DNA of 64,000 nt from Dactylococcopsis salina PCC 8305 (lineage in GTDB: Bacteria > Cyanobacteriota > Cyanobacteriia > Cyanobacteriales > Rubidibacteraceae), in NCBI RefSeq assembly GCF_000317615.1, contig NC_019780.1:2253840-2317839 (forward strand). The letters run 5' to 3'. Below are positions 29,434-63,210 of this stretch, in pieces; the first letter of the stretch is position 1; each line of letters begins with the position of its first letter. Below the pieces are notes generated by a model. That model ran no database searches. It saw only the letters and a list, made by a program, of their open reading frames with translations, and had not been told where the DNA came from. Made by a program: the position numbers and the translations under genes.

Positions 29434-29448
29434 TCTTTCTAGTTAGGA

Positions 29449-29603: not shown

Positions 29604-29653
29604 AGTCTCTCTTTTCCATCTCCCCAAAGTTGGGGTTGGGGGCGGAAAAGGAA

Positions 29654-34200: not shown

Positions 34201-34509
34201 CAGCATATGTAGGGTTCCCATGACATTGGTTTTAACCGTCTTGACGGGATTAAACTGATAATGAACGGGAGAAGCGGGACAAGCCAGATGATAAACTTGA
34301 TCCACTTCTAAACGGATCGGTTCGGTGATATCGTGACGGATAGCTTCAAAATGCGGATTGTTCAGCCAACGTTTGATGTTGTCTTTTCGTCCCGTGTAGA
34401 AGTTATCGAGACAGATGACTTCATGTCCTTCTGACATTAATCGATCGATGAGGTGAGACCCAATGAATCCCGCACCTCCTGTTACTAAAATTCTCATATT
34501 GTCCGTCAA
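31201..34509 (-). CDS. UDP-glucuronate decarboxylase (UDP-xylose synthase) precursor with two inteins
   Basis: The 1102-codon frame encodes an extended-SDR enzyme interrupted twice. Extein residues 1-145, 479-509 and 958-1102 join to 321 residues, the normal length for UXS. Visible are the NAD motif [19 protein letters not shown], the catalytic segment STSEVYGDP, the catalytic Tyr and Lys in CYDEGKR, and ARIFN plus TYGPRM. UXS makes UDP-xylose from UDP-glucuronate, linking it to ugd downstream. Splicing is required for activity because intein 1 sits beside the catalytic Tyr/Lys and intein 2 splits a conserved loop. Confidence 0.95.
31639..32982 (-). other. Intein 2 (448 aa) with LAGLIDADG endonuclease
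   Basis: Residues 510-957 of the UXS precursor. It begins with Ser ([11 protein letters not shown]). Block B is [11 protein letters not shown]. The endonuclease blocks are [11 protein letters not shown] and [12 protein letters not shown]. The C-terminal part has [15 protein letters not shown] and ends GICCHN, with canonical His-Asn, before extein Thr958. It shares no obvious similarity with intein 1 outside the motifs, so the two probably arrived independently. Confidence 0.93.
33076..34074 (-). other. Intein 1 (333 aa) with LAGLIDADG endonuclease
   Basis: Residues 146-478 of the UXS precursor. Block A starts [14 protein letters not shown]. Block B is [10 protein letters not shown]. The homing-endonuclease blocks are [11 protein letters not shown] and [12 protein letters not shown]. 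The C-terminal splicing region is [18 protein letters not shown] and then LCGN, followed by extein Cys479. The nucleophiles are Cys1 and Cys+1. The penultimate residue is Gly rather than the usual His. The insertion site is immediately before the extein CYDEGKR motif. Confidence 0.93.
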
Positions 34510-34527: not shown

Positions 34528-34710
34528 TTATAGTATCCTTGAATGGTCAAAATGTCTAGGCTTTACGCGATCAAGAATTTGTTTCCCTAGTATTTGTTCC
34601 CATAACTGACTATCAATGATCAAATCACCGCGCGATCGGATTCCCTTCACCGTTGGTAAAGGCGCTACAATTAAATCCAAAAAATGGGAAATCAAGACGC
34701 GATCGATCAC
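34528..34710 (-). CDS. Short uncharacterised frame, possibly a gene fragment
   Basis: 60 codons on the complement, directly upstream of the UXS gene and overlapping the first 27 bp of the opposing Rpn-type gene. The stretch LDLIVAPLPTVKGIRSRGD has protein-like composition, but I do not recognise it. It may be the 3' end of a gene whose front was displaced, or chance. Confidence 0.25.
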   Translation of the reverse strand: MIDRVLISHFLDLIVAPLPTVKGIRSRGDLIIDSQLWEQILGKQILDRVKPRHFDHSRIL

Positions 34711-35622
34711 GATCGTCTATTCAAAGAATTAATATCAACCTTTTTTCTCGAATTTCTAGAACTGTTCTTTCCGCAAGTTTTAGACGATCTCGAACCCGAA
34801 TCAGTCAGCTTTCGGGATAAAGAAGTCTTTACCGATGTGACAAGGGGAGAACGTTACGAAACCGACTTATTAGCAGAAGTTCAATTTCGAGGAGAAGACT
34901 CTTATTTTCTCATTCATCTGGAAAACCAAGCCTCATCGGAAAGTGACTTTAATAAAAGAATGTTCCGCTACTTTGCGCGGTTACATGAAAAGTTCAACTT
35001 ACCGATTTATCCCATTGTCATTTTCTCTTATGACCAACCGCAAAAACAAGCGATTAATTATTACCAAGTTGAATTTCCTGATTTCCAAGTCTTACAATTT
35101 AATTATCGGGTGATCCAGTTGAACCGCTTAAACTGGCGAGACTTTCTGAATCAAGCCAACCCAGTCGCTTGTGCGTTAATGGCAAAAATGAAAATCGCAC
35201 CCGTAGAACGTCCGCGAGTCAAATTAGAATGTCTGCGCTTATTAACTACTTTACGCTTAGACCCAGCACGAATGCAACTCATTTCTGGGTTTGTTGATAC
35301 TTATTTACGTCTCAATACTCAAGAGTTAGAAGTTTTTAATCAAGAGTTTGAACAACTGGAATCAAATACAGTTAAGGAGGAAATTATGGAAATTACAACT
35401 AGCTGGAAGGAAGAAGGAAAACGGGAAGGAAAACAGGAAGGAAAACAGGAAGGAAAACAGGAATTAATCCTTAGTTTACTGAGTTATCGTCTGGGAAATT
35501 TATCATCAGAAACGCAAGCAGAAATCATGGGCTTAAATAGTTCTCAGTTAGAGGAGTTAGGGGTGGCAATGTTTACTTTAGAAAATGAGGAAAGTTTAAA
35601 GCGTTGGTTAGCTGATTCTTGA
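34684..35622 (+). CDS. Rpn-family PD-(D/E)XK nuclease/putative transposase with DUF4351 tail
   Basis: 312 residues. The N-terminal nuclease-like region contains DHDRLFKELISTFF, YETDLLAEVQF (Asp and Glu of the fold) and HLENQASSES with a catalytic-type Glu-x-Gln. A linker has four-residue repeats (EGKQ x3, encoded by 12-bp units at about 35416-35463), and a DUF4351-type end contains LLSYRLGNLSSE and LKRWLADS. Related Rpn proteins promote RecA-independent recombination. The gene lies between intein-bearing UXS and ackA, with a dispersed repeat after it. Confidence 0.85.
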   Translation: MGNQDAIDHDRLFKELISTFFLEFLELFFPQVLDDLEPESVSFRDKEVFTDVTRGERYETDLLAEVQFRGEDSYFLIHLENQASSESDFNKRMFRYFARLHEKFNLPIYPIVIFSYDQPQKQAINYYQVEFPDFQVLQFNYRVIQLNRLNWRDFLNQANPVACALMAKMKIAPVERPRVKLECLRLLTTLRLDPARMQLISGFVDTYLRLNTQELEVFNQEFEQLESNTVKEEIMEITTSWKEEGKREGKQEGKQEGKQELILSLLSYRLGNLSSETQAEIMGLNSSQLEELGVAMFTLENEESLKRWLADS

Positions 35623-48407: not shown

Positions 48408-48509
48408 ATACCATTTTAGAAAAGTCAAGTTACCTTAAAGCCCCCCAACCCCCCAAGTTTGGGGGGCTTAAGTAGTCGATACTGTAGCGCCAATTCTCCA
48501 AAATGGTAT
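48408..48509. repeat. 102-bp nested palindrome (ATACCATTTT element), copy 1
   Basis: Outer arms ATACCATTTT and AAAATGGTAT enclose an inner hairpin (AAGCCCCCCAA with TTGGGGGGCTT-type complement). It lies just past the stop of the first Rpn-like paralog and probably ends its transcript. It has MITE-like structure: small, palindromic, multi-copy. Confidence 0.88.
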
Positions 48510-48532
48510 AAATATAAAATCGCGCTACTAAA

Positions 48533-49384
48533 CTACTGCTCTTGATTAATGAATTGAGTTACTTCTTCTGGGGAAAGTTCAGTAAGTTCAGCAATTTCCT
48601 CAATTGCCATGCCTCGACTTAAAAGGTTGCGGATGAATCTTCGCTGCGCGATCGTGATGCCTCGTTGTTCAGCTTCTTGAAGACGTTGTGTATAAACTGT
48701 TGATAACTGCATAAGAAATTCCCTCTCTTCACTTTCTAAACCTTGTTGCTCTTGCTGTCTTACTTCTAAGATAGCAACCATATTCGCTACAATTTCGAGC
48801 ATTCTATCCCGAAAGGGGTTGCTTGGCGGCAACTGCTGTAACTCTTCGATCGCCTGCATTTGTACTTTACCGCGACCAAAAATCCTTAAGAATAAGGTGT
48901 CGGGAGTGCGAGGGAGTTGGTGTATGGCAACGAGAACGGTTCTCAATCCTTCTACACAAAAGTAAAAGCCCTCCACCCAGTTATCTAAGTCTGGTTTCGC
49001 CCCAAATGCTTCAATTACTGAGTTGGAAATGGTCGGTGAGAGAATCCAGAGGGTAGGCGTTTCTTGTTCCGAGAATGGGGTTTGTTCTCTTCGGTAGCGT
49101 CGTTGTTGGCTTGCTTCTAAATCCAGTAATTTTTTCAAGCACTTCCGCACTTCTTTAACATCAATGGGATTACGATACGGTTCAATGACAGCAGGAGTTA
49201 ACGCCAATTTTCCCAAGAAACCTAATGCGGTTAAGTTAGCTTTCTTGTCGGGATCAGGAGTGAAAAAGAAATCAATTTCGCGAACTTCGGAAGCCACCTT
49301 AGAATCTACCTCGCTTTTTCCAAAAGAATAGAGCAATTCTTCAAGAGAATCTTTACTAAATTGGTCGTGAAGGTTTCGAGTCAA
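48533..49384 (-). CDS. Rpn-like PD-(D/E)XK family protein, paralog 1
   Basis: 283 residues. A nuclease-like N-terminal part begins LHDQFSKDSLEELLYSFG with SEVREIDFFFTPDPDKK (conserved acidic residue). A helical centre (FRDRMLEIVANMVAILEVRQ) follows. A C-terminal helix-turn-helix-like end reads RNLLSRGMAIEEIAELTELS. It belongs to a large cyanobacterial group often labelled flagellar assembly protein H or hypothetical. The start is a TTG without a clear ribosome-binding site. It is the shortest paralog, with one tetrapeptide unit (EQRG) before ITIAQRRF. Confidence 0.72.
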   Translation of the reverse strand: MTRNLHDQFSKDSLEELLYSFGKSEVDSKVASEVREIDFFFTPDPDKKANLTALGFLGKLALTPAVIEPYRNPIDVKEVRKCLKKLLDLEASQQRRYRREQTPFSEQETPTLWILSPTISNSVIEAFGAKPDLDNWVEGFYFCVEGLRTVLVAIHQLPRTPDTLFLRIFGRGKVQMQAIEELQQLPPSNPFRDRMLEIVANMVAILEVRQQEQQGLESEEREFLMQLSTVYTQRLQEAEQRGITIAQRRFIRNLLSRGMAIEEIAELTELSPEEVTQFINQEQ

Positions 49385-49513
49385 AAGAAAGAATCAGGGA
49401 TGAGTTTTTTTTATTATCTCATCTTGGGGTCTCAATTGTTGGTAACAATGGAAGCGCGATCGAATCTTGGATTCGGTGACCCTTCCGGTCAATCGAGCAT
49501 AGACCTTGAATTC

Positions 49514-49614
49514 ATACCATTTTGGAAAAGTCAAGTTACCTTAAAGCCCCCAACCCCCCAAGTTTGGGGGGCTTAAGTCGTCGATACTGTAGCGCCAATT
49601 CTCCAAAATGGTAT
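49514..49614. repeat. 101-bp ATACCATTTT element, copy 2
   Basis: Nearly identical to the copy at 48408, with arms ATACCATTTTGG and CCAAAATGGTAT. It follows the stop of paralog 2. The flanking TATAAAATCGCGCTACTAAA is also shared, so the copies moved together with the genes. Confidence 0.88.
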
Positions 49615-49637
49615 AAATATAAAATCGCGCTACTAAA

Positions 49638-50549
49638 CTACTGCTCTTGATTAATGAATTGAGTCACTTCTTCTGGGGAAAGTTCAGTGAGTTCAGCAAT
49701 TTCCTCAATTGCCATGCCTCGACTTAAGAGGTTACGGATGAATCTTCGTTGCGCGATCGCAATGCCACGCTCTTCACCGCGTTGTTCACCTCGTTGTTCA
49801 CCGCGTTGTTCACCGCGTTGTTCACCGCGTTGTTCAGCCTCTTGAAGACGTTGGGTATAAACTGTTGATAGTTGCATGAGAAATTCCCTCTCTTCACTTT
49901 CTAAACCTTGTTGCTCTTGCTGTCTTACTTCTAAGATAGCAACCATATTCGCTACAATTTCGAGCATTCTATCCCGAAAGGGGTTGCTTGGTGGCAACTG
50001 CTGTAACTCTTCGATCGCCTGCATTTGCACCTTACCGCGACCAAAAATCCTTAAAAATAAGGTATCCCGAGTGCGAGGGAGTTGGTGAATAGCTACCAAA
50101 ACGGTTCTGAATCCTTCGCCACAAAAATAGAAGCCCTCCACCCAGTTTTCTAAATCTGGTTCAGCTTTAAATGCTTCCAGCACTGAGTCAGAAATGGTCG
50201 GTGAGAGAATCCAGAGAGTCGGCGCTTCTTGTTCCGATAAAGGAGTTTGTTCTCTTCGGTAGCGTCGTTGTTGGCTTGCTTCTAAATCCAGTAACTTTTT
50301 TAAGCACTTCCGCACTTCCTTAACATCAATGGGATTACGATACGGTTCGATCATCGCTGGGGTTAACGCTAATTTCCCCAAGAAGCCTAATGCGGTTAAG
50401 TTAGCTTTCTTGTCGGGATCAGGAGTGAAAAAGAAATCAATTTCGCGAACTTCGGAAGCCACCTTAGAATCTACCTCGCTTTTTCCAAAAGAATAGAGCA
50501 ATTCTTCAAGAGAATCTTTACTAAATTGGTCGTGAAGGTTTCGAGTCAA
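49638..50549 (-). CDS. Rpn-like PD-(D/E)XK family protein, paralog 2
   Basis: 303 residues, almost identical to paralog 1 apart from a linker of tandem EQRG units (five or six, last EERG) encoded by 12-bp repeats at about 49771-49845. The 5' flank, including a GATGAG...CTCATC hairpin and GTTGGCAAC, is shared with the other copies. The start is again TTG. Function is inferred only at family level. Confidence 0.72.
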   Translation of the reverse strand: MTRNLHDQFSKDSLEELLYSFGKSEVDSKVASEVREIDFFFTPDPDKKANLTALGFLGKLALTPAMIEPYRNPIDVKEVRKCLKKLLDLEASQQRRYRREQTPLSEQEAPTLWILSPTISDSVLEAFKAEPDLENWVEGFYFCGEGFRTVLVAIHQLPRTRDTLFLRIFGRGKVQMQAIEELQQLPPSNPFRDRMLEIVANMVAILEVRQQEQQGLESEEREFLMQLSTVYTQRLQEAEQRGEQRGEQRGEQRGEQRGEERGIAIAQRRFIRNLLSRGMAIEEIAELTELSPEEVTQFINQEQ

Positions 50550-50728
50550 AAGAAAGAATCAGGGATGAGTTTTTTTTATTATCTCATCTTGAGTTCCCTA
50601 ATTGTTGGCAACAATGGAAGCGCGATCGCGCTTCTTTAGCTTACTTTACCCATGTTTTGCCCCTCACCCAACACCGCTCTAACCAACCTTGTAAAATTAA
50701 TTTCAGAACCTTCCAGCAGTTAACCCTT

Positions 50729-51307
50729 ATGACGACTACCACCCTCAACCTCAATCCCATCATTCAATTAAGCAAAGAACAATTTTACACCCTATGTGCA
50801 ATCAACCCCGACACCAAGCTAGAGCTCAACGCTAACGGAGAATTAATTGTTATGTCGCCCACAGGTGGAGAAACCAGTGCTTGGAATGCTGAACTCATTA
50901 TTGATTTAGGTGTATGGAATCGCCAAACGGGGTTGGGAAAAACCTTTGATTCTTCTGGGGGATTTGCTTTACCCAATGGCGCACAGCGATCGCCTGATGT
51001 CGCCTGGATTCCGTTAGAAAAATGGAACGCACTAACAACAGAGGAAAAGAAGGGCTTTCTCCCCCTGTGTCCTGATTTTGTCATGGAACTGCTATCTCCC
51101 TCAGATTCTTGGAAGCCAGGAACTGAGAAAATGGAAGAATATAAAGAAAATGGCTGTCGCTTAGGTTGGCTAATTGAACCACGAAATAAGCGAGTTGCGA
51201 TCTACCGCGCCAAACAAGCGGTAGAAATTTTAGAAGCTCCCAAGTTTCTTTCTGGGGAAGATGTTTTGAAGGGATTTCACTTAAATCTTGCCAAAATCTG
51301 GCGGTAA
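50729..51307 (+). CDS. Uma2 family (DUF820) endonuclease-like protein
   Basis: 192 residues from ATG 50729, where the family normally starts (MTTTTLNLNPIIQLSKEQF); the frame is open for 24 more codons upstream. Visible are LELNANGELIVMSPTGGETS, RSPDVAWIPLEKW (Asp), PDFVMELLSPSD (Glu) and GCRLGWLIEPRNKRV. It sits between paralogs 2 and 3 on the opposite strand. It is only distantly similar to the Uma2 at 39874. Confidence 0.9.
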   Translation: MTTTTLNLNPIIQLSKEQFYTLCAINPDTKLELNANGELIVMSPTGGETSAWNAELIIDLGVWNRQTGLGKTFDSSGGFALPNGAQRSPDVAWIPLEKWNALTTEEKKGFLPLCPDFVMELLSPSDSWKPGTEKMEEYKENGCRLGWLIEPRNKRVAIYRAKQAVEILEAPKFLSGEDVLKGFHLNLAKIWR

Positions 51308-51320
51308 AAGTTCTTATTGT

Positions 51321-51347
51321 TTGTCCTTCGACAGGCTCAGGAACACC
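51321..51347. repeat. TTCGACAGGCTCAGGAACA dispersed motif
   Basis: A short sequence just after the Uma2 stop with a CCTTCGACAGGCTCAGG foldback. The same string is scattered in many bacterial genomes, as I recall. It may act as a terminator or transposon footprint. Confidence 0.4.
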
Positions 51348-51393
51348 TTCGTCCTTTGTTGACTAATAACAAATAACAAATAACAAAAATAGA

Positions 51394-52320
51394 CTAAGAA
51401 ACGCTATACTGTTCATCTTGATTAATCAGTTGAGTGACTTCTTCCGGGGAAAGTTCGGTGAGTTCAGCAATTTCCTCAATTGTCATGCCTCGACTTAAAA
51501 GGTTGCGGATGAATCTTCGCTGCGCCAGTTTCACCCCTTGTTCAATACCTTGTTCAATACCTTGTTCAATACCTTGTTCAACGCCACGCTCTTCACCTCG
51601 TTGTTCAGCCTCTTGAAGGCGTTGAGTATAAACCGTTGATAACTGCATCAGAAATTCCCTCTCTTCACTTTCTAAACCTTGTTGCTCTTGCTGTCTTACT
51701 TCTAAGATAGCAACCATATTCGCTACAATTTCGAGCATTCTATCCCGAAAGGGATTGCTTGGCGGCAACTGCTGTAACTCTTCGAGCGCCTGCATTTGTA
51801 CTTTACCGCGACCAAAAATCCTTAAAAATAAGGTGTCGGGAGTGCGAGGAAGTTGGTGTACGGCAACGAGAACGGTTCTCAATCCTTCTCCACAAAAGTA
51901 AAAGCCCTCCACCCAGTTTTCTAAGTCTGGTTTCGCCCCGAATGCTTCAATTACTGAGTTGGAAATGGTCGGTGAGAGAATCCAGAGAGTCGGCGCTTCT
52001 TGTTCCGATAAAGGAGTTTGTTCTCTTCGGTAGCGTCGTTGTTGGCTTGCTTCCAAATCCAGTAATTTTTTCAAGCACTTTCGCACTTCTTTAACATCAA
52101 TGGGATTACGATACGGTTCGATCATCGCTGGGGTTAATGCTAATTTTCCCAAGAAACCTAATGCGGTTAAGTTAGCTTTCTTGTCGGGATCAGGAGTAAA
52201 AAAGAAATCAATTTCGCGAACTTCGGAAGCCACCTTAGAATCTACCTCGCTTTTTCCAAAGGAATAGAGCAATTCTTCGAGAGAATCTTTGCTAAATTGG
52301 TCGTGAAGGTTTCGAGTCAA
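51394..52320 (-). CDS. Rpn-like PD-(D/E)XK family protein, paralog 3
   Basis: 308 residues, the longest copy. The linker combines EQRG, EERG and four EQGI/EQGV units, so both repeat types seen in the other paralogs meet here. The C-terminus differs slightly (LINQDEQYSVS). The 101-bp element normally found after the stop is missing in this copy. Confidence 0.72.
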   Translation of the reverse strand: MTRNLHDQFSKDSLEELLYSFGKSEVDSKVASEVREIDFFFTPDPDKKANLTALGFLGKLALTPAMIEPYRNPIDVKEVRKCLKKLLDLEASQQRRYRREQTPLSEQEAPTLWILSPTISNSVIEAFGAKPDLENWVEGFYFCGEGLRTVLVAVHQLPRTPDTLFLRIFGRGKVQMQALEELQQLPPSNPFRDRMLEIVANMVAILEVRQQEQQGLESEEREFLMQLSTVYTQRLQEAEQRGEERGVEQGIEQGIEQGIEQGVKLAQRRFIRNLLSRGMTIEEIAELTELSPEEVTQLINQDEQYSVS

Positions 52321-52382
52321 AAGAATTAGGGATGAGTTTTTCCTATTATCTCATCTTGAGTTCCCTAATTGTTGGCAACAAT

Positions 52383-52419
52383 GGAAGCGCGATCGAATCT
52401 TGGATTCGATCGCGCTTCC
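52383..52419. repeat. Perfect 17-bp-stem hairpin built on HIP1-like sequence
   Basis: GGAAGCGCGATCGAATC and its exact reverse complement are separated by TTG. It lies between paralogs 3 and 4. The related sequence at about 49450-49488 keeps the left arm but has lost part of the right arm. Confidence 0.85.
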
Positions 52420-52446
52420 GGTCAATCGAGCATAGACCTTGAATTC

Positions 52447-52547
52447 ATACCATTTTGGAAAAGTCAAGTTACCTTAAAGCCCCCAACCCCCCAAGTTTGG
52501 GGGGCTTAAGTCGTCGATACTGTAGCGCCAATTCTCCAAAATGGTAT
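52447..52547. repeat. 101-bp ATACCATTTT element, copy 3
   Basis: Same size and arms as the copy at 49514, following the stop of paralog 4. The internal CCCCCC/GGGGGG hairpin is intact. Confidence 0.88.
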
Positions 52548-52570
52548 AAATCTAAAATCGCGCTACTAAA

Positions 52571-53434
52571 CTACTGCTCTTGATTAATGAGTTGAGTTAC
52601 TTCTTCTGGAGAAAGTTCAGTGAGTTCAGCAATTTCCTCAATTGTCATGCCTCGACTTAAAAGGTTACGGATCAATCTTTTTTGTGCAAGTTTAACCCCT
52701 TGTTCAATGCCTTGTTGAGTTGCCTCTTCTAGACGTTGGGTATAAACCGTTGATAACTGCATAAGAAATTCCCTCTCTTCACTTTCTAAACCTTGTTGCT
52801 CTTGCTGTCTTACTTCTAAGATAGCAACCATATTCGCTACAATTTCGAGCATTCTATCCCGAAAGGGATTGCTTGGTGGCAACTGCTGTAACTCTTCGAT
52901 CGCCTGCATTTGTACCTTACCGCGACCAAATATTCTTAAGAATAAGGTATCGGAAGTGCGAGGGAGTTGGTGTATGGCAACGAGAATCGTTCTCAATCCT
53001 TCTCCACAAAAGTAAAAGCCCTCCACCCAGTTTTCTAAATCTGGTTTCGCTCGAAATGCTTCCAGCACTGAGTCAGAAATGGTCGGTGAGAGAATCCAGA
53101 GAGTGGGCGCTTCTTGTTCCGATAAAGGAGTTTGTTCTCTTCGGTAGCGTCGTTGTTGGCTTGCTTCTAAATCCAGTAATTTTTTCAAGCACTTCCGCAC
53201 TTCTTTAACATCAATGGGATTACGATACGGTTCAATGACAGCAGGAGTTAACGCCAATTTTCCCAAGAAACCTAATGCGGTTAAGTTAGCTTTCTTGTCG
53301 GGATCAGGAGTGAAAAAGAAATCAATTTCGCGAACTTCGGAAGCCACCTTAGAATCTACCTCGCTTTTTCCAAAAGAATAGAGCAATTCTTCGAGAGAAT
53401 CTTTACTAAATTGGTCGTGAAGGTTTCGAGTCAA
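52571..53434 (-). CDS. Rpn-like PD-(D/E)XK family protein, paralog 4
   Basis: 287 residues. The linker is short and of the EQG type (QQGIEQGVKLAQKRL). The nuclease-like part and the C-terminal helix-turn-helix-like end match the other copies with a few substitutions. TTG start. Confidence 0.72.
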   Translation of the reverse strand: MTRNLHDQFSKDSLEELLYSFGKSEVDSKVASEVREIDFFFTPDPDKKANLTALGFLGKLALTPAVIEPYRNPIDVKEVRKCLKKLLDLEASQQRRYRREQTPLSEQEAPTLWILSPTISDSVLEAFRAKPDLENWVEGFYFCGEGLRTILVAIHQLPRTSDTLFLRIFGRGKVQMQAIEELQQLPPSNPFRDRMLEIVANMVAILEVRQQEQQGLESEEREFLMQLSTVYTQRLEEATQQGIEQGVKLAQKRLIRNLLSRGMTIEEIAELTELSPEEVTQLINQEQ

Positions 53435-53815: not shown

Positions 53816-56800
53816 ATGGCAGATTTTAACGGAGATGACAACGACAATAATCTTGTTGGTAACGACAATGAAGATGATGTGATTCAGGGGTTTGATGGCA
53901 ATGATTCTCTAGTTGGTTTAGGCGGTAATGATCGTTTGATCGGTGGATTTGGCAACGACACTCTCGACGGTGGATTTGGCAACGACACTCTCAACGGTGG
54001 CAATGGTGATGATATTTACCAGATTAGCCGTGATTTGAGCGGTGTTAACACCATCAATGATGTTGCTGGGAATGATACGCTAGAAATTTTTGACACCGAA
54101 GGGACTGCCTTCCAAGTTTCCTTAGAAGCACCCACGGTAGGATTAATCGGAATTGAAAGAGATGGGGCTAACGTTTTAGTTGATATCGTTGCTGATGGCA
54201 TTGCCGATGACCTAATCGTTGAAGATTTCTTTGCTTCTGCCAATAGCAATACTCCAGGTGCAGGATTTATTGAAACTTTTGGCGTTACCTCTGGCAGAGA
54301 TGTCCAAGATTTCTTGGCGGTTAATGTCCCTCCCGAAAATCAGCCTCCTGTGGTTGGTATCGGTAACTTTGAGATTGATGAATTTGCTGCCAACGGAACA
54401 CAATTCGGTCAGCTAGACATTAGCGACCCAGATGGGGATGATTTAACGGTTAGCTTGAGTGAAGCCTCTCAAGTCCGTCTGATCAATACATTTACAGGGG
54501 GAGAAACAGAAGACCCCGATGTTGATGGTGATGGTGATGCGCCCTTTGCGATTGACAATGAAGGGGTAATTACTGTTAACGATACCGATGATCTCGGACC
54601 TTTATTTGAAGTGGTTTCGTTTGGTAATTTCTTCGCATTTACTCGGACTGTTCCTTCCTTTGACTTAACAGTAGAAGTAAGCGACGGTGAAGCAACAACT
54701 GAGGGAGCCTCCAGTATTGATGTCAACCTTGGTCGTCCCGCCTTTGGCTTTGGTGATCCTCACGTTACCACCTTTGACCGTAATAGCTTCGGCTTCCAAG
54801 TGGTGGGTGAGTTCACTCTCATTGAGTCCACTGATGAAAATAACCCGTTAAACATTCAGGCTCGCACCGCCCCTGCTATTCAGGAAAACGGAGAACCTTC
54901 AGATCGACTGTCCAACTACACCGCCATTGGAACTGAAATTGATGGCAATACCGTTGCGATTTATGCAGGAGAAGAAAATCCTGTGTTTGTCGATGGTGAA
55001 GCCGTAACCGATTTTGGTGTAGCTGGAATCGAAGTGGGAGATGGCGGTCGCATTGTTAACTTGGGTAATGGCTTCTTTAACATTAGCCTCGGCGGTGAAG
55101 CCCAAGAACGGATCGTTGTACAAGTTTTTGAAAACCGCATTGATCCTCGTTTCTTCCTTTCTGAGGAACGTAATGGCAACATTACAGGTGTCATGGGGAA
55201 TAAAGATGGCGATCCCAGTAATGACATCGTTGACAGCAACGGTGATGTGATTCAAGAGGCAACCTTTGAACAAATTAACGGTGAGTTTGCTGAGGCCTTC
55301 CGTATTACTGACGGTGCCAATTCTTTACTCTTACGGGATGGAGAAGATATTGAAAACATCAACAATCCTGATTTCCCTGCCGAAGAAGTGACCCTCGCCA
55401 GCTTAGAAGCGGAGTTAGGCACAGAAGCCTTCAATGAAATTGTTGCCCAAGTCGAAGAAGCGGGTGTTCCCGAAGGATTCTTACGGACTTCAGCGATTAT
55501 CGACTTTGCCACCACAGGGGATGATACCTTTATTGGTTCCGCTCTCAATGTGGCTGGTGGTAATGCGACACCAGAAGTAGATAATGCTGTCTTCACTATT
55601 GAAGAAGATTTAGCCGATGGTGAAGTGGTCGGAACTGTCTCAATCCAAGACGGTGATGATGGTTTAGAAAACCTCGAAGTCAGCATCAGTGCTGGAAATG
55701 AAGATATTGATGGTGATGGGGAAGCTCCGTTTGCGATCGATGGACAGGGACAAATCACAATCAATGATAGCGGTGATTTAGATGCTTTCGGTTTTACCTT
55801 AAGCGTCACGGCAACTGACCCTCTAGGTGCAACAGCTACGGGTTCGGTTACTATTGCTTTTAATCCTCCTGATGTTGATCAGCCCCCAAGCGTAGCAGCA
55901 AATGTCAATGAGATTCGTGAAAACAGCGTTGAGGGAACGATCGTCGGTCAGGCGATCGCCGTTGATGCCGAAGGCGATGACTTCACCTTTGGTCTCGATG
56001 GTGAGTTAGACCCCAACGGTAATGGCACAGATGCCTTCACCATTGCTCCTGAAAACGGTTTAATTACCGTTGCTGACCCTGGCGATTTAGACTTTGAAAC
56101 CACACCGAGTTTTGGGTTTGATATTACTGCAACTCAGACCAATGATGATACGATTATTGGCACAAGTACAGTTACCGTCAACTTAATTGATAATGATGAT
56201 GAGACAGCAACCCCAACGTTTAATCTCGATGTGGATGAGAACGGCGTTGCCAACGGTTCAGTCGATGGCTTAAATATCTTGAATTTCCTATTCGGCTTAG
56301 GGGCCCAAACCATGGATACCAGTCAAGCCCCCGACGAAGTTGGTCAGCAAAACATCTTTGATAACATCCAGGAGGGACTCGACATCGACAATCCGGCCCT
56401 TGATGTGGATCGAAGTGGAGTTGCTAACGGTTCGGTAGATGGCTTGAACATCCTGCGAGTTTTGGCAAACTTGGGACCCGAACAAATGGATATTAGCCAA
56501 ACCGACCTTGGTCAGCAAAATGTGTTTGATAACGTTCAAGCCTTAGACATACCAGGTGATGATATCCTTGTCGAACCAATTCAACCAGAAGATGGGATTC
56601 CCAATCATGTTGTTGAGGCAAACTTAACCTCTCCTGTAGAAGCAGGTTCGGAAGTTGAGATCAATCTCTCTTACCGTACAGAAGACCCAGAAGCCGCTAA
56701 TGCAGAATTTTTAAGTTTTTCAGTAGCTGTGGATTCTTCAGTGTTGCAACTAGAAGATACTAACCCTGATTTGTCAGGCATTCAGCTACCAGAAGGAACA

Positions 56801-58159
56801 TTTGTTGATCGCTTTGAGTTTGGTTCATTGTTATCGAATGGCATTCCCAGTGCTTTTGAAGATACGAATAATCTAGATAACGACCCCAATACTGATGTTC
56901 TTATTAGTTTCGCTTATTCCCGCGGTTTTGATGAAGACTGGCCCTTTGGCGCTGATGAAATTCCAGAAGGAGAAACATCGGTTGATTTAGGAAAATTACG
57001 GCTTCCCTTAGCAGATAGTTTTGATCCAGCTACTGACACCACAACCGCTAACATTATCCTGCGTGATCCAGATTCAAGTTTTCAAGCGAACCCAGAAGAA
57101 AATCTGGATGAGTTAGTAATCAGTGCTGAACAAGGAATTAATGAATCGCCAGTGGCTACAGACGATAGCAATCAGACTGACGAAGATACGGTTCTCAATG
57201 TTGATGCTGCCAATGGAGTCCTTACCAATGATAGCGACCCCGATGGGGACAATCTCACAGTTAGCGCGGTCAATGGAGAAGAAGCTAATGTTGGCACGAC
57301 GTTTGAGTTAGATTCAGGAACTTTACTGACTCTCAATGCTGATGGAAGTTATGAATATGACCCCAATGGTGCATTTGAAGACCTCAACGACGGAGACACT
57401 GCTACTGATACCTTTACCTACACTGTAGCTGACGGGAATGGTGGTACAAATACCGCAGAGATAACAGTTACCATCGACGGAATTACCGATGGTTTTGATG
57501 AACCTGTTCTTAGTGCTGTCGATGATTTGGTCTTCGGAACTTCTAATAACGACACCCTCAATGCCGCTGATCAAAATGATCCTTACACAGGGAATAACCA
57601 AATCACCTTCACTGGCGCTGGGGAAGACCTTGTTGATGGTTCGATCGGGGGAGATGGTTCTAACCGTAATTATGGTGGCAGCAATGCTGATGAATTATTT
57701 GCAGGGAACAACGATCGTCTTTTTGGAGAAGGCGGTAACGATACCCTAGATGCTTCTCAAGGAACGGGTAATAACCGACTTTATGGAGGCGACGACAATG
57801 ATGATCTCATTGCAGGAAATGATGATTTACTAACAGGTGGGAATGGAGACGATCGTCTTTTCGTGCGACAAGGCGGAAACAATCTTCTGATTGGCAATAG
57901 CGGCGCTGATCAATTCTGGATTGCTACTGATGAAATTCCCAACTCTCCTAACATCATTACCGATTTTACATCAGGAGAAGACGCGATCGGTTTCGGTGGT
58001 TTCCCAGACCTGAGTTTTAGTGATTTGAGTTTGAGTCAAGAAGGGTCAAACACTCTCATTGGTTTGGATGCTAACGACCCGATCGCTGAATTACAAGGGG
58101 TACAAGCCAATACCTTAACCGAAAATGACTTTGTTTTTGCAGCACAGTCTCCCCAGTAG
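53816..58159 (+). CDS. Large RTX exoprotein with vWD, cadherin-like, dockerin-like and cohesin-like regions
   Basis: 1447 very acidic residues without a signal peptide. Order: RTX nonapeptides (about 28-66, GGNDRLIGG); a cadherin-like stretch; a vWD-type domain from about 310 (GDPHVTTFDRNSFGFQVVG); more cadherin-like repeats (about 580-790); two EF-hand/dockerin-like loops (about 800-905, DVDENGVANGSVDGLNIL and DVDRSGVANGSVDGLNIL); a cohesin-like region (about 925-1100); a VCBS-like domain (about 1105-1225); and a C-terminal RTX module. It is probably exported by a type I system (genes not in the window) and folded by Ca2+ outside. Adhesion or matrix function is inferred. Confidence 0.88.
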   Translation: MADFNGDDNDNNLVGNDNEDDVIQGFDGNDSLVGLGGNDRLIGGFGNDTLDGGFGNDTLNGGNGDDIYQISRDLSGVNTINDVAGNDTLEIFDTEGTAFQVSLEAPTVGLIGIERDGANVLVDIVADGIADDLIVEDFFASANSNTPGAGFIETFGVTSGRDVQDFLAVNVPPENQPPVVGIGNFEIDEFAANGTQFGQLDISDPDGDDLTVSLSEASQVRLINTFTGGETEDPDVDGDGDAPFAIDNEGVITVNDTDDLGPLFEVVSFGNFFAFTRTVPSFDLTVEVSDGEATTEGASSIDVNLGRPAFGFGDPHVTTFDRNSFGFQVVGEFTLIESTDENNPLNIQARTAPAIQENGEPSDRLSNYTAIGTEIDGNTVAIYAGEENPVFVDGEAVTDFGVAGIEVGDGGRIVNLGNGFFNISLGGEAQERIVVQVFENRIDPRFFLSEERNGNITGVMGNKDGDPSNDIVDSNGDVIQEATFEQINGEFAEAFRITDGANSLLLRDGEDIENINNPDFPAEEVTLASLEAELGTEAFNEIVAQVEEAGVPEGFLRTSAIIDFATTGDDTFIGSALNVAGGNATPEVDNAVFTIEEDLADGEVVGTVSIQDGDDGLENLEVSISAGNEDIDGDGEAPFAIDGQGQITINDSGDLDAFGFTLSVTATDPLGATATGSVTIAFNPPDVDQPPSVAANVNEIRENSVEGTIVGQAIAVDAEGDDFTFGLDGELDPNGNGTDAFTIAPENGLITVADPGDLDFETTPSFGFDITATQTNDDTIIGTSTVTVNLIDNDDETATPTFNLDVDENGVANGSVDGLNILNFLFGLGAQTMDTSQAPDEVGQQNIFDNIQEGLDIDNPALDVDRSGVANGSVDGLNILRVLANLGPEQMDISQTDLGQQNVFDNVQALDIPGDDILVEPIQPEDGIPNHVVEANLTSPVEAGSEVEINLSYRTEDPEAANAEFLSFSVAVDSSVLQLEDTNPDLSGIQLPEGTFVDRFEFGSLLSNGIPSAFEDTNNLDNDPNTDVLISFAYSRGFDEDWPFGADEIPEGETSVDLGKLRLPLADSFDPATDTTTANIILRDPDSSFQANPEENLDELVISAEQGINESPVATDDSNQTDEDTVLNVDAANGVLTNDSDPDGDNLTVSAVNGEEANVGTTFELDSGTLLTLNADGSYEYDPNGAFEDLNDGDTATDTFTYTVADGNGGTNTAEITVTIDGITDGFDEPVLSAVDDLVFGTSNNDTLNAADQNDPYTGNNQITFTGAGEDLVDGSIGGDGSNRNYGGSNADELFAGNNDRLFGEGGNDTLDASQGTGNNRLYGGDDNDDLIAGNDDLLTGGNGDDRLFVRQGGNNLLIGNSGADQFWIATDEIPNSPNIITDFTSGEDAIGFGGFPDLSFSDLSLSQEGSNTLIGLDANDPIAELQGVQANTLTENDFVFAAQSPQ
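57509..58149 (+). repeat. 641-bp C-terminal RTX cassette, copy A
   Basis: This segment recurs at 62317-62957 with constant offset 4808, that is, without a single net indel. It encodes about 213 residues from LSAVDDLVFGTSNNDTLN to the end. Differences cluster at the 3' end (GGFPDLSFSDLSLSQ against GSFPDLSFNDLIVNQ). Confidence 0.93.
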
Positions 58160-58285
58160 GTTGGGTGGAGAGTAGCGAAACCCAACCTTAATCAGTCTCC
58201 CCAGTAGGTTGGGTGGAGAGTAGCGAAACCCAACCTTAATCAGTCTCCCCAGTAGGTTGGGTGGAGAGTCGCGAAACCCAACATT
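58151..58285. repeat. Three tandem 48-bp TAGGTTGGGT repeats
   Basis: Copies start at 58151, 58199 and 58247, each CCCCAGTAGGTTGGGTGG plus AGAGTAGCG or AGAGTCGCG and AAACCCAACC. The first overlaps the stop region of the RTX gene. Confidence 0.95.
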
Positions 58286-58323
58286 ATTGTTGGCAACAAT
58301 GGAAGCGCGATCGCGCTACTAAG

Positions 58324-59226
58324 CTACTGTTCATCTTGATTAATGAGTTGAGTCACTTCTTCTGGGGAAAGTTCAGTGAGTTCAGCAATTTCCTCAATTG
58401 TCATGCCTCGACTTAAAAGGTTGCGGATGAATCTTCGCTGCGCGATCGCAATGCCACGCTGTTCACCTCGTTGTTCACCTCGCTGTTCACCGCGTTGTTC
58501 ACCGCGTTGTTCAGCCTCTTCTAGACGTTGGGTATAAACCGTTGATAGTTGCATGAGAAATTCCCTCTCTTCAGTTTCTAAACCTTGTTGCTCTTGCTGT
58601 CTTACTTCTAAGATAGCAACCATATTCGCTACAATTTCGAGCATTCTATCCCGAAAGGGGTTGGTTTCTGGTAGTTGCTGTAACTCTTCAATTGCCTGCA
58701 TTTGCACCTTACCGCGACCAAAAATCCTTAAGAATAAGGTGTCGGGAGTGCGAGGAAGTTGGTGTATGGCAACCAAAACAGTTCTGAATCCTTCCCCACA
58801 AAAATAGAAACCTTCCACCCAGTTTTCTAAGTCTGGTTCAGCTTTAAATGCTTCCAGCACTGAGTCAGAAATGGTCGGTGAGAGAATCCAGAGAGTCGGC
58901 GCTTCTTGTTCCGAGAATGGGGTTTGTTCTCTTCGGTAGCGTCGTTGTTGGCTTGCTTCTAAATCCAGTAATTTTTTCAAGCACTTTCGCACTTCTTGGG
59001 CATTAATGGGATTACGATACGGTTCAATGACAGCAGGAGTTAACGCTAATTTCCCCAAGAAGCCTAATGCGGTTAAGTTAGCTTTCTTGTCGGGATCAGG
59101 AGTGAAAAAGAAATCAATTTCGCGAACTTCGGAAGCCACTTTAGAATCTACCTCGCTTTTTCCAAAAGAATAGAGCAATTCTTCAAGAGAATCTTTACTA
59201 AATTGATCGTGAAGGTTTCGAGTCAA
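58324..59226 (-). CDS. Rpn-like PD-(D/E)XK family protein, paralog 5
   Basis: 300 residues, separated from the other four by the 4.3-kb RTX gene. The linker has five EQRG units (12-bp repeats, about 58459-58512). Small differences (NPINAQEVRKC, LPETNPFRD) make it the most divergent copy, though still nearly identical over most of its length. TTG start with the shared 5' flank. Confidence 0.72.
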   Translation of the reverse strand: MTRNLHDQFSKDSLEELLYSFGKSEVDSKVASEVREIDFFFTPDPDKKANLTALGFLGKLALTPAVIEPYRNPINAQEVRKCLKKLLDLEASQQRRYRREQTPFSEQEAPTLWILSPTISDSVLEAFKAEPDLENWVEGFYFCGEGFRTVLVAIHQLPRTPDTLFLRIFGRGKVQMQAIEELQQLPETNPFRDRMLEIVANMVAILEVRQQEQQGLETEEREFLMQLSTVYTQRLEEAEQRGEQRGEQRGEQRGEQRGIAIAQRRFIRNLLSRGMTIEEIAELTELSPEEVTQLINQDEQ

Positions 59227-59336: not shown

Positions 59337-59675
59337 TCATTGTTCTGTTCCTCTTGCATCAAGCAACCAACGCTTAAGATCAGCGATCGAGGTAAAATCC
59401 AAGAGAGCTTCAGCCAGGGCTTCAGTTTGCTCAATCTCTAATTTCTCAATCTGGGTTTGAATTGGGGAAGGAATGTCTCCAAAACGCCGTGAGAGCAGTC
59501 GCCAGACTAGTGATCGCGCTTCTGTTTTTTTCCCGCGCTGTTCAACTTGTTGTTCCCATTCTATAAAGGCTTGTGGCAAGGGCCTAGTCACCTCCTCCCC
59601 TTCTGGGAGTTCTGGATTGGCTTCGACAATGATTTTCCATCCCTCCCCCAAACCGCGATCGCGCCTTACCCTCAA
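59337..59675 (-). pseudogene. C-terminal fragment of an Rpn/DUF4351 protein
   Basis: About 112 codons read LPQAFIEWEQQVEQRGKKTE, SLVWRLLSRRFGDIPSP and IADLKRWLLDARG. This is the linker and DUF4351 end of Rpn-type proteins such as the one at 34684. The nuclease domain is absent and the first residues (MRVRRDRGLGEGWK) look unrelated, so this is a truncated remnant. Confidence 0.7.
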
Positions 59676-59868: not shown

Positions 59869-62800
59869 ATGACTAGCTCTAGTTTTGAAACTGCTGAGCG
59901 CATCGATTCCACCGACATTATTGACGATTCGGTAGAAGCAGGATTCGACGATTCCGACTACTATGTCTTCAACTTGGCTCAGGAGAGTACCGCTGAAGTG
60001 ACTCTCGATGTTTCCGAAGACGATGCTGACCTGTACTTATACGATAGCGCTCAAAATTTCATCGCCTTGTCGATGAATGGAGGCTTGGATTCAGAATTTA
60101 TTGTCGAGGAGTTAGCAGCTGGAGATTATTACTTAGAAGTTGAGGCTTGGTCTGGTTTCACTGACTATACCTTAGACCTGTTGAGTTTCTCAGAACCAAT
60201 CATTGATGATAACGACAGCTTCGACACAGCGAATCGCCTTGATGCCACCGACATTATTTCCAGTGATGTTGAGGTGGATGTTGATGATTCTGACTACTAT
60301 GTCTTCAACTTAGCTCAGGAGAGTACCGTTAATGTTATTCTCAATGTTGATCTAGATGATGCTGACCTGTTCTTATATGATAGCAGTCAAAACGTCATCG
60401 CTTCTTCAGCTAACGCAGGACTCAGTTCGGAATCTATTGTCGAGGAGTTAGCAGCCGGAGATTATTACTTAGAAGTTGAGGCTTGGTCTGGTTTCACTGA
60501 CTACACCTTAGACCTATTGAGTGTCTCAGAAGAACCGACCTATGATGACGGTAATAATACTTTCGAGTCTGCTATGGCGATCGAGATTGGCGAAACCAAG
60601 ACAGAAAGAGTGAGTTCTAGCGATCCAGAGGACTACTACTCTTTTAACTTAGTCAACGACACGATGATCGAACTCAACTTGACAGGAATTGGAGGGGATG
60701 CCGATCTCGAACTGTATGATGCTAATGAAGAGTATGTAGATGGGTCTTCCAGTTTTGACTCTTCTGAGACGATCGAGACATTTTTGGCTAGTGGCGAGTA
60801 TTTCATCAAAATCGATGCTTACAGCGGAGAGATAGACTATGAGCTATCTCTCGCCTCAAGTGACAGTCCTTCAATTCCCGACGATTCTGCGGGCAATAGT
60901 CTTGACGAAGCATTATCAATCGGCATCAATGATACTCATTCTGAAGGAGTCGGACAAGACGGCGACGAGCTAGACTACTTCCGCTTTGAATTAGATAGCT
61001 TGAGTGAAGTAACAATTGGACTCAGTGGCCTGTCAGCAGACTTAGATCTAGAACTCCTTAATGTCGAGGGCGGTATTATCAGTTCCTCAGAAAAAGGCGG
61101 TTTCCAAGATGAAAGTATTTCTGCTCTACTAGAGGCTGGAACGTATTTCATCAAAGTAGATCCCTTTGGGCCTGCAATCAGTAGCTATGAGTTGGAGATT
61201 GCCTCTGAAACAGCGTCGATTTCTCCCGAACCAAATCCCTTTGATGCTCGAACTGGTTATGGTTTCTTGGATGCATCTGTTGCTGTCGCATCAGTACTGA
61301 ATCAAGATCCTTTTCCCATCGTTGATCTGTTTGGTGATGGCGATGAGTGGGCAGTGAATATGGTTAACGCACCGGAAGTTTGGGAGCAAGGCTATACAGG
61401 GGAAGGTATGGTTGTTGCAGTTCTCGATACAGGTATTGACAGAAATCATCCCGATTTATTCGACAACATTTGGGAAAATTCTGGGGAAATACCAAACAAT
61501 GGAGAGGATGATGACGGAAATGGCTTCGTCGATGATGTTTACGGGTGGAACTTTGCGGGGAATAAAAACGATACCTCAGACCTACAAGGACACGGAACCC
61601 ACGTTGCAGGAACAATCGCCGGTCGTGATGATGGTGTAGGTGTCACTGGTGTTGCCCATAACGCCCAAATCATGCCTGTTAAAGTTTTAGGGGATGATGG
61701 CTTTGGAACCTATCAAGGGATAGCCAACGGGATCGTATATGCCACTCAAAATGGGGCAGATGTGATCAATATGAGTTTAGGCGGTCCCAATCCATCTCCT
61801 ATAATAGAGGATGCCATTGAATATGCTGTTGATCAAGGAGTCATAGTCATTTCTGCTGCAGGCAATGAGGCTCAGGAGGAGCCAGCTGCTCCAGGTGTTT
61901 TTGCCGATGAATTTGGCGTGGTGGTAGGTTCTGTTAACCGCAGTAACCAGCAATCCAGTTTTTCCAACGAAGCAGGGGAAGATCCATCAATGATTTACGT
62001 AACAGCCCCTGGAGAAGACATTTATTCTTCTATTCCAGGAGGAGATTATGATTCTTGGAATGGCACTTCCATGGCAACTCCTCACGTTGCAGGAATAGTG
62101 ACGCTAATGTTGGAAGCGAACCCTGACTTAAGTGATCAGGAAGTTCGTGAAATTATCTCTTCAAGCACAACCAATTCTCCTACTATAACTACCAATTCTG
62201 ATTTGAGCGGTTTTGGCATTCAGAGTGCCAAAAGTAGCGAAATTGCACCTTCTTTCGAATTTCAAAATGACGACTCAATTCCTGTTGAAATTCCCGAGTC
62301 AGCAGACATCACAGATCTTAGTGCTGTCGATGATTTGGTCTTCGGAACTTCTAATAACGACACCCTCAATGCCGCTGATCAAAATGATCCTTATACAGGG
62401 AATAACCAAATCACCTTCACTGGCGCTGGGGAAGACCTTGTTGATGGTTCGATCGCGGGAGATGGTTCTAACCGTAATTATGGTGGCAGCAATGCTGATG
62501 AATTATTTGCAGGGAACAACGATCGTCTTTTTGGAGAAGGCGGTAACGACACCCTAGATGCTTCTCAAGGAACAGGTAATAACCGACTTTATGGAGGCGA
62601 CGACAATGATGATCTCATTGCTGGAAATGATGATTTACTAACAGGTGGGAATGGAGACGATCGTCTTTTCGTGCGACAAGGCGGAAACAATCTTCTGATT
62701 GGCAATAGCGGCGCTGATCAATTCTGGATTGCTACTGATGAAATTCCCAACTCTCCTAACATCATTACCGATTTTACATCAGGAGAAGACGCGATCGGTT

Positions 62801-62967
62801 TCGGTAGTTTCCCAGACCTTTCTTTTAATGATCTCATTGTGAATCAAAATGGAGAAAACACTCTCATTGGTTTAGAGGCTAACAACCCGATCGCTGAATT
62901 ACAAGGGGTACAAGCCAATACCTTAACCGAAAATGACTTTGTTTTTGCAGCACAGTCCCCTGTTTAG
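59869..62967 (+). CDS. Subtilisin-like (S8) serine protease with N-terminal PPC domains and RTX tail
   Basis: 1032 acidic residues, no signal peptide, start preceded by GAGGAG. Four pre-peptidase C-terminal (PPC) type beta-domains fill about 1-450 (for example DSDYYVFNLAQEST, ELAAGDYYLEVEAWSG twice). The S8 catalytic domain (about 500-785) has Asp520 (VLDTGID), His575 (GHGTHVAG) and Ser734 (NGTSMATPH). The rest is the C-terminal RTX cassette shared with the 53816 gene. It is likely secreted by a type I system and active outside the cell in Ca2+. PPC domains usually follow the protease, so their position here is unusual. Confidence 0.94.
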   Translation: MTSSSFETAERIDSTDIIDDSVEAGFDDSDYYVFNLAQESTAEVTLDVSEDDADLYLYDSAQNFIALSMNGGLDSEFIVEELAAGDYYLEVEAWSGFTDYTLDLLSFSEPIIDDNDSFDTANRLDATDIISSDVEVDVDDSDYYVFNLAQESTVNVILNVDLDDADLFLYDSSQNVIASSANAGLSSESIVEELAAGDYYLEVEAWSGFTDYTLDLLSVSEEPTYDDGNNTFESAMAIEIGETKTERVSSSDPEDYYSFNLVNDTMIELNLTGIGGDADLELYDANEEYVDGSSSFDSSETIETFLASGEYFIKIDAYSGEIDYELSLASSDSPSIPDDSAGNSLDEALSIGINDTHSEGVGQDGDELDYFRFELDSLSEVTIGLSGLSADLDLELLNVEGGIISSSEKGGFQDESISALLEAGTYFIKVDPFGPAISSYELEIASETASISPEPNPFDARTGYGFLDASVAVASVLNQDPFPIVDLFGDGDEWAVNMVNAPEVWEQGYTGEGMVVAVLDTGIDRNHPDLFDNIWENSGEIPNNGEDDDGNGFVDDVYGWNFAGNKNDTSDLQGHGTHVAGTIAGRDDGVGVTGVAHNAQIMPVKVLGDDGFGTYQGIANGIVYATQNGADVINMSLGGPNPSPIIEDAIEYAVDQGVIVISAAGNEAQEEPAAPGVFADEFGVVVGSVNRSNQQSSFSNEAGEDPSMIYVTAPGEDIYSSIPGGDYDSWNGTSMATPHVAGIVTLMLEANPDLSDQEVREIISSSTTNSPTITTNSDLSGFGIQSAKSSEIAPSFEFQNDDSIPVEIPESADITDLSAVDDLVFGTSNNDTLNAADQNDPYTGNNQITFTGAGEDLVDGSIAGDGSNRNYGGSNADELFAGNNDRLFGEGGNDTLDASQGTGNNRLYGGDDNDDLIAGNDDLLTGGNGDDRLFVRQGGNNLLIGNSGADQFWIATDEIPNSPNIITDFTSGEDAIGFGSFPDLSFNDLIVNQNGENTLIGLEANNPIAELQGVQANTLTENDFVFAAQSPV
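62317..62957 (+). repeat. 641-bp C-terminal RTX cassette, copy B
   Basis: Partner of 57509-58149. Near-identity at silent positions over the first 450 bp indicates recent duplication or gene conversion rather than selection alone. Confidence 0.93.
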
Positions 62968-62970
62968 TTT

Positions 62971-63152
62971 CCCCAGTAGGTTGGGTGGAGAGTCGCGAAA
63001 CCCAACCTTAAGCAGTCTCCCCAGTAGGTTGGGTGGAGAGTCGCGAAACCCAACCTTAAGCAGTCTCCCCAGTAGGTTGGGTGGAGAGTCGCGAAACCCA
63101 ACCTTAAGCAGTCTCCCCAGTAGGTTGGGTGGAGAGTCGCGAAACCCAACAT
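62971..63152. repeat. Four tandem 48-bp TAGGTTGGGT repeats
   Basis: Copies start at 62971, 63019, 63067 and 63115, uniform and with the same period and sequence as the array at 58151. A degenerate inverted copy follows at about 63174-63200. The array lies between convergent genes. Confidence 0.95.
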
Positions 63153-63210
63153 TTAGCAGTTATTACGTGGGAAGTGTTGGGTTTCATTTCGCCCAATCGA
63201 CATGAGGGTT

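What the first reader, a model, noticed from the sequence alone, without database searches (positions are those of the whole stretch)
48533..53434. Recently amplified array of Rpn-like genes with variable tetrapeptide linkers
Four tandem copies plus one at 58324 are almost identical in the nuclease-like and C-terminal parts. They differ in the number and type of 4-residue (12-bp) repeats (EQRG, EERG, EQGI), giving 283-308 residues. Flanks are copied as well. A variable-length linker between a nuclease-like domain and a helix-turn-helix end suggests slippage-driven variation, perhaps altering dimer geometry or target choice. The unrelated Rpn at 34684 has the same design (EGKQ repeats).
Basis: partly seen in the sequence, partly recalled or inferred. 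Interest (0 to 1): 0.78.

Follow-up and report, generated by a model that had tools for sequence, protein, structure and literature searches.

The report
Nuclease genes hiding their own antidotes
A cyanobacterium carries five copies of a gene that probably encodes a DNA-cutting toxin and, from a second ribosome start inside the same gene, the small protein that restrains it; the copies differ mainly in a fast-changing four-amino-acid repeat that, in E. coli relatives, decides which antidote fits which toxin.

Summary
In detail: five paralogues (48533-53434 and 58324-59226, minus strand), 283-308 aa, differ by whole 12-bp/4-aa units. "Almost identical" is too strong (dS 0.12-0.35, mosaic by gene conversion), and an opposing Uma2 gene splits copies 2 and 3.

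Each gene contains an internal ATG with a Shine-Dalgarno (SD) sequence, 17 residues before the repeats. In 50 homologues below 70% identity the codons before that Met are chosen to form the SD (mean dG -8.0 against -4.1 for synonymous shuffles; 50/50 below their null); 22 further homologues agree. The long-form start has essentially no SD. Six stand-alone ORFs elsewhere in the genome begin exactly at this Met. This is the RpnL/RpnS gene-within-a-gene toxin-antitoxin design of E. coli rpn (PMC10327210), in the same codon register ([K/R]-E-x-x-M).

The N-domain is not recognised as Rpn by Pfam, NCBIfam or profile-profile comparison. It is a cyanobacterial family with a PD-(D/E)XK-like predicted fold and invariant D38/E68. 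In another array of this genome neighbours with dS=0 already differ in repeat number. Verdict: new variant of a known kind. Toxicity, nuclease activity and antitoxin action are untested.

The parts
48533..49384 (-). Copy 1, long form (RpnL-like), 283 aa, TTG start, 1 tetrad
48533..48712 (-). Copy 1 predicted internal small protein (RpnS-like), 59 aa, ATG with SD GAGAGGGA just upstream (48719-48730)
49638..50549 (-). Copy 2, long form, 303 aa, TTG start, 6 tetrads
49638..49877 (-). Copy 2 predicted internal small protein, 79 aa
50657..51307 (+). Uma2-family gene between copies 2 and 3 (not part of the repeat unit)
   Evidence: PF05685 E 3e-44
51394..52320 (-). Copy 3, long form, 308 aa, TTG start, 6 tetrads of other sequence
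51394..51648 (-). Copy 3 predicted internal small protein, 84 aa
52571..53434 (-). Copy 4, long form, 287 aa, TTG start, 2 tetrads
52571..52762 (-). Copy 4 predicted internal small protein, 63 aa
58324..59226 (-). Copy 5, long form, 300 aa, TTG start, 5 tetrads
58324..58554 (-). Copy 5 predicted internal small protein, 76 aa
48430..48540 (.). MITE-like inverted-repeat element after copy 1, also after copies 2 and 4; part of the duplicated unit
59337..59675 (-). Orphan DUF4351 (RpnS-like) fragment next to copy 5; the internal Met is AGG although its SD is intact
34684..35622 (+). Separate Rpn-type gene with EGKQ repeats and DUF4351 end, same design
35386..35622 (+). Its predicted internal small protein, 78 aa, 'aaggaggaaatt ATG'

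Best explanation
Each gene is an Rpn-type gene within a gene. A weak, SD-less start (TTG here) makes a long protein: a PD-(D/E)XK-like nuclease domain plus a C-terminal RpnS module. A strong internal SD-ATG makes the RpnS module (59-84 aa) on its own, probably in excess. RpnS should bind the identical module at the end of the long protein through the repeat-bearing helix and keep the nuclease off. Because toxin and antitoxin share the same DNA, gaining or losing 12-bp units changes both partners at once and makes a new self-matching specificity. Tandem duplication, repeat change and gene conversion would thus give several insulated toxin-antitoxin pairs in one cell, probably for phage defence. 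Shown here: genes, repeats, internal SD-ATG and selection on it at synonymous sites, stand-alone RpnS ORFs starting at that Met, fast repeat change, mosaicism, and a nuclease-like predicted fold. Inferred from E. coli Rpn (PMC10327210): RpnS expression, binding, inhibition, repeat-coded specificity, phage defence.
For: Internal SD: 50 homologues below 70% identity, dG -8.04 vs -4.12 synonymous null, 50/50 below null, site-specific among 294 offsets; long start has none, -0.64; repeated in 22 further homologues, -6.97 vs -3.73, long start +0.43. Arg at -4 uses NGG codons 23/27 vs 249/1166, 32/41 vs 80/272 for Arg before Glu/Asp. Met invariant in the seed alignments. Same [K/R]-E-x-x-M register and SD in E. 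coli rpnA and in the 34684 gene. Six stand-alone ORFs start at this Met, dN/dS about 0.36. Repeats start at residue 18 after the Met in 127/140; the preprint gives 8-20. C-end matches TIGR01784 end; 27/54 relatives carry DUF4351 instead, the family that PMC10327210 names for separately encoded RpnS. Fold; invariant D7, K11, E33, D38, E68. Repeat number changes at dS 0.000.
Against: No expression, toxicity, binding or nuclease data for these genes. Fold matches are weak (best E 0.1) and motif III reads E-P-[F/Y]-R instead of E-x-K/Q. N-domain has no sequence link to canonical Rpn. No clear internal promoter. Stand-alone ORFs lack the SD and may stem from one or two events. The array neighbourhood contains no recognised defence genes apart from the Uma2 gene.
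Confidence: 0.72

Rival explanations
1. One reading: a single protein whose variable linker changes the spacing between nuclease and DNA-binding end, altering dimer geometry or DNA target, as TAEL repeats do in EcoR124I/II.
For: Repeat lengths vary in whole helical tetrads between a nuclease-like domain and an HTH-like end. EcoR124 precedent is cited in PMC10327210.
Against: Does not explain selection for an SD and Met just before the repeats nor stand-alone ORFs that hold repeats and HTH end without any nuclease domain.
Confidence: 0.12
2. Neutral expansion: tandem duplication helped by the MITE-like flanks, with 12-bp slippage tolerated because it keeps frame and helix; no functional meaning of repeat number.
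For: MITE-like element follows copies 1, 2 and 4 and is abundant in the genome. Slippage is expected in perfect 12-bp repeats. Truncated and decayed copies exist.
Against: Long forms are under purifying selection, dN/dS about 0.1. Frame is kept in all five. Within all seven groups compared, neighbours have different RpnS sequences. It explains origin, not maintenance.
Confidence: 0.2
3. The internal start is real, but the small protein is a partner subunit (as Cas11d is for Cas10d) or a DNA-binding autorepressor rather than an antitoxin.
For: HTH-like C-end; intragenic subunits such as Cas11d are known (cited).
Against: In the closest studied relatives the small protein inhibits the nuclease directly; half of the family has a DUF4351 end instead of the HTH-like one.
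Confidence: 0.12

Closest known systems
E. coli Rpn (RpnA-E, RpnP2): RpnL/RpnS intragenic toxin-antitoxin (PMC10327210; RpnAS structure PDB 7TH0)
   Same: Internal start with SD in the same [K/R]-E-x-x-M codon register; 4-aa repeats shortly after it; HTH-like or DUF4351 C-end; tandem arrays; free-standing RpnS genes next to long ones.
   Different: N-domain without detectable sequence relation, other motif III, SD-less and TTG/ATG long start, far larger and more varied within-genome set, cyanobacteria only among the 80 best hits.
PF14261 DUF4351 proteins (RpnS-like module)
   Same: 27 of 54 members of the same family end in it.
   Different: The window copies have the HTH-like end instead.
EndoMS/NucS, Card1, Can2 and other PD-(D/E)XK nucleases
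   Same: Best structural matches of the N-domain model, with a-b-b-a-b-a-b order and D on strand 2, E on strand 3.
   Different: E-values 0.1-0.5 only; no E-x-K; a conserved Lys lies in the following helix.
EcoR124I/II TAEL repeats
   Same: Change in number of four-residue (12-bp) repeats alters specificity.
   Different: There the repeats set DNA-site spacing; here they lie in the putative dimerisation helix of an antitoxin module.

Membership tests
Rpn family (TIGR01784 / PF04754 / COG5464) | N-terminal Rpn nuclease domain recognisable by sequence | tested here: not met
   No Pfam hit to the N-domain; TIGR01784 only over the C-end and below cut-off; hhalign to canonical Rpn of relatives Prob 0.4, E 0.15. 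COG5464 itself was not available.
Rpn family (TIGR01784 / PF04754 / COG5464) | PD-(D/E)XK fold and catalytic residues | tested here: inconclusive
   AF2 pLDDT 90; the first nine PDB matches are PD-(D/E)XK enzymes but E >= 0.097; D38, E68 invariant, no E-x-K/Q.
RpnL/RpnS intragenic toxin-antitoxin | Internal start with SD that gives the C-terminal module | tested here: met
   Synonymous-site selection for the SD; register as in rpnA. This is sequence evidence; expression was not tested.
RpnL/RpnS intragenic toxin-antitoxin | 4-aa repeats beginning 8-20 residues after the internal Met, number variable | tested here: met
   Residue 18 in 127/140 proteins, 1-14 tetrads.
RpnL/RpnS intragenic toxin-antitoxin | C-terminal module related to RpnS (TIGR01784 end or DUF4351) | tested here: met
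   TIGR01784 C-end E 2e-8 to 6e-7; DUF4351 in 27/54 relatives. Direct pairwise match to RpnA is weak, E 0.037.
RpnL/RpnS intragenic toxin-antitoxin | Free-standing RpnS copies | tested here: met
   Six ORFs starting at the internal Met.
RpnL/RpnS intragenic toxin-antitoxin | Long form toxic nuclease, blocked by cognate short form; phage protection | not testable with these tools
   Needs expression, growth, cleavage and plaque assays.
Uma2 (PF05685) nuclease-like family | Sequence relation of the N-domain | tested here: not met
   hhalign Prob 0.1, E 0.51.

The most novel reading that the evidence does not exclude
A separate cyanobacterial PD-(D/E)XK-like toxin lineage uses the RpnS antitoxin module with its internal start, and tandem duplication plus tetrapeptide change acts as a lock-and-key generator: one cell holds many toxin-antitoxin pairs kept apart by repeat number and sequence, with a pool of free-standing RpnS ORFs that serve as spare antitoxins or recombination donors.
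Probability: 0.4. Interest if true: 0.78.

Novelty: new variant of a known kind. Interest (0 to 1): 0.62.

Why it matters
It extends the intragenic toxin-antitoxin principle, shown so far in E. coli and for one C. difficile gene, to a large cyanobacterial family mostly annotated as hypothetical or DUF4351 protein, with codon-level evidence that the internal start is under selection. The near-identical array at 629-635 kb of the genome (two copies with dS 0.000 but 3 and 5 tetrads) is a natural experiment for the open question of how the 12-bp repeats change and whether each change makes an insulated pair. It also warns that expressing such a gene as one ORF would co-express its inhibitor.

Tried and rejected
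Canonical Rpn membership of the N-domain by sequence: rejected. Uma2 relation: rejected. FliH-like NCBIfam matches: taken as an effect of the charged repeats. PADLOC: no hit for the window copy. PDB sequence search with the family profile: nothing; the 8vd6 match to RpnS (annotated 'CAP REPEAT') covers only the HTH-like part. Internal promoter: scattered synonymous-site signals, no clear -10/-35 pair; the depletion of synonymous change in codons 197-224 is not explained by the SD alone. Relatives in viral contigs: none. Same-locus comparison: copies in same-genus genomes G001 and G002 lie at other loci, so strain-level repeat polymorphism could not be measured.

Full report
WHAT IS THERE. The window is part of a 3.78-Mb single-contig genome; the family's closest named relatives are cyanobacterial. 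Five minus-strand ORFs of 283, 303, 308, 287 and 300 aa lie at 48533-49384, 49638-50549, 51394-52320, 52571-53434 and 58324-59226. They are 91-95% identical as proteins to copy 2. They differ by whole 4-residue units after 'EAEQRG', giving chains of 1, 6, 6, 2 and 5 Gly-spaced tetrads. TRF finds the 12-bp units independently. Flanks are shared: about 90 bp upstream and, after copies 1, 2 and 4, a ~110-bp inverted-repeat element with 56 matches in the genome. The array is not purely tandem: a Uma2-family gene (50657-51307, plus strand) lies between copies 2 and 3. The start is TTG in all five; most homologues have ATG-MTRFIHDQFAKD or similar at the same place.

HOW RECENT. Over the first 224 codons pairwise dS is 0.12-0.35 and dN 0.014-0.037, so 'almost identical' and 'recent' are overstated. 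dS to the single copy in same-genus genome G002 is 0.38-0.45 and to the two copies in G001 0.47-0.76, so most of the amplification happened in this lineage. Sites are mosaic among copies (60% of informative site pairs incompatible; PHI-like permutation p=0.0005), which points to gene conversion. A much more recent array lies elsewhere in the genome, at 629-635 kb. There two copies differ by 2 of 639 bases before the internal start (dS 0.000) yet carry 3 and 5 tetrads. In all seven groups compared (six in this genome, one in G001) every pair differs in its RpnS sequence. Repeat number can therefore change faster than synonymous sites.

THE HIDDEN FEATURE. Seventeen residues before the repeats every copy has 'GAAGAGAGGGAATTTCTN-ATG', an in-frame ATG with an SD-like GAGAGGGA. 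The published work on E. coli Rpn shows that such an internal start makes a small antitoxin, RpnS, that blocks the long nuclease, RpnL (PMC10327210). I tested whether the feature is selected. In 50 homologues below 70% identity the anti-SD pairing energy before this Met averages -8.04 kcal/mol, against -4.12 when synonymous codons are permuted within each gene. All 50 lie below their own null mean. Across 294 codon offsets the observed-minus-null mean is 0.00 with sd 0.59, and only offsets whose windows overlap the site depart strongly. Arg four codons before the Met uses AGG/CGG in 23 of 27 cases against 249 of 1166 elsewhere, and Glu three codons before uses GAG in 30 of 38 against 386 of 1606. 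Limiting the comparison to Arg followed by Glu/Asp leaves 32/41 against 80/272, p=6e-9. The result repeats in 22 homologues from another collection that are below 70% identity to the first set: -6.97 against -3.73. The start of the long form has no such SD (mean -0.64 and +0.43 in the two sets). E. coli rpnA has K240-E241-x-x-M244 with 'aaggagagttta ATG', and the separate Rpn-type gene at 34684 has 'aaggaggaaatt ATG': the same register.

INDEPENDENT SUPPORT. Six ORFs elsewhere in the genome begin exactly at this Met with a stop two codons upstream, downstream of full or truncated copies (genome 851627, 851861, 852105, 2877550, 2888698, 2888918). Their dN/dS is near 0.36. They share one type of leader and may come from one or two founding events, and they lack the SD. 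Several 5'-truncated copies keep both SD and ATG. In 127 of 140 proteins with a chain of two or more tetrads the repeats begin at residue 18 after the Met; the preprint gives 8-20.

THE TWO DOMAINS. The C-terminal part is RpnS-like: TIGR01784 matches its end at E 2e-8 to 6e-7, below the curated cut-off, and relatives of the same N-domain end in DUF4351 in 27 of 54 cases. In this genome the 629-635 kb and 3226 kb arrays share 162 of 216 N-part residues but have DUF4351-type and HTH-type ends respectively, so the module can be exchanged. The N-domain is not recognised by Pfam and shows no profile link to canonical Rpn of related genomes. AF2 gives pLDDT 90 and the order a-b-b-a-b-a-b. The first nine PDB matches are Card1, EndoMS, NucS (two chains), Can2, three R2 proteins and Nt.BspD6I. 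To my knowledge all hold PD-(D/E)XK domains, but E-values are 0.1-0.5. D7, K11, E33, D38 and E68 are invariant in 87 sequences and K85 holds in 84. Motif III reads E-P-[F/Y]-R, so the lysine may have moved to the next helix, or activity may differ. I call it PD-(D/E)XK-like, not proven.

DISTRIBUTION. 27 of 40 genomes among relatives, own genome included, and at least 65 of 291 genomes of the phylum carry the family (a lower bound because only ten candidates per genome were scored). The 80 best hits in a GTDB-wide collection are all cyanobacteria. It occurs on some cyanobacterial plasmids, annotated as hypothetical or DUF4351 proteins. It was not found in viral contigs.

MECHANISM. Inferred from the E. 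coli precedent: excess RpnS pairs with the identical module on the long protein through the repeat helix and keeps the nuclease off; adding one repeat to only one partner abolishes inhibition in RpnC. With both partners read from the same DNA, each repeat change is matched within a gene and mismatched between copies, so the five copies should form insulated pairs. Copies 2 and 3, equal in number but different in sequence, are the key test. None of this has been shown for these genes.

VERDICT. Real feature, re-interpreted: a new variant of the Rpn intragenic toxin-antitoxin kind, with a distinct N-domain and unusual within-genome expansion.

Noticed in passing
31201-34509 (-): A sugar-nucleotide epimerase/decarboxylase-like ORF of 1102 aa appears to carry two intein-like inserts (two C...HN-type blocks interrupting the enzyme sequence). 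Read by eye only.
   Followed up: no
48430-48540 and genome-wide: The inverted-repeat element TACCATTTTGGA...TCCAAAATGGTA has 56 matches in the genome: a likely MITE.
   Followed up: partly
59337-59675 (-): Orphan DUF4351 fragment keeps the SD but its internal Met codon is AGG; the Val codon three upstream is GTG instead of GTA and might serve as start.
   Followed up: partly
genome 2175137-2177277 and 2876179-2877482 (loci L057, L056): Five 5'-truncated copies share an identical fusion junction ('GGTAACTGGTAACTGGTCAC...') and keep the internal SD-ATG, as if one truncated cassette had been multiplied.
   Followed up: partly
53816-58159 and 59869-62967 (+): Two large RTX-like proteins share nearly the same C-terminal domain and are each followed by 48-bp tandem repeats (58145-58286, 62966-63160). 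The copies in same-genus genome G001 also lie beside an RTX-like gene.
   Followed up: no
L246-L263 (canonical Rpn genes of related cyanobacteria): Many show an in-frame 'agg-gag-gag-att-gcn-nnn ATG' block near the C-terminal third, suggesting that canonical cyanobacterial Rpn genes also have an internal start.
   Followed up: partly
genome-wide: The Uma2 family has 70 matches in this genome and similarly many in relatives.
   Followed up: no
29446-29604; 1208-1827: A perfect 31-bp x 5.1 tandem repeat, and a 315-bp tandem duplication with CGTTATT heptamers.
   Followed up: no
codons 197-224 of the five copies (e.g. 48713-48796 in copy 1): Synonymous change is depleted over ~85 bp before the internal start (p=0.0066 in the five copies, 2e-4 with orthologues), more than the SD alone needs; an internal promoter or other signal is possible.
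   Followed up: partly
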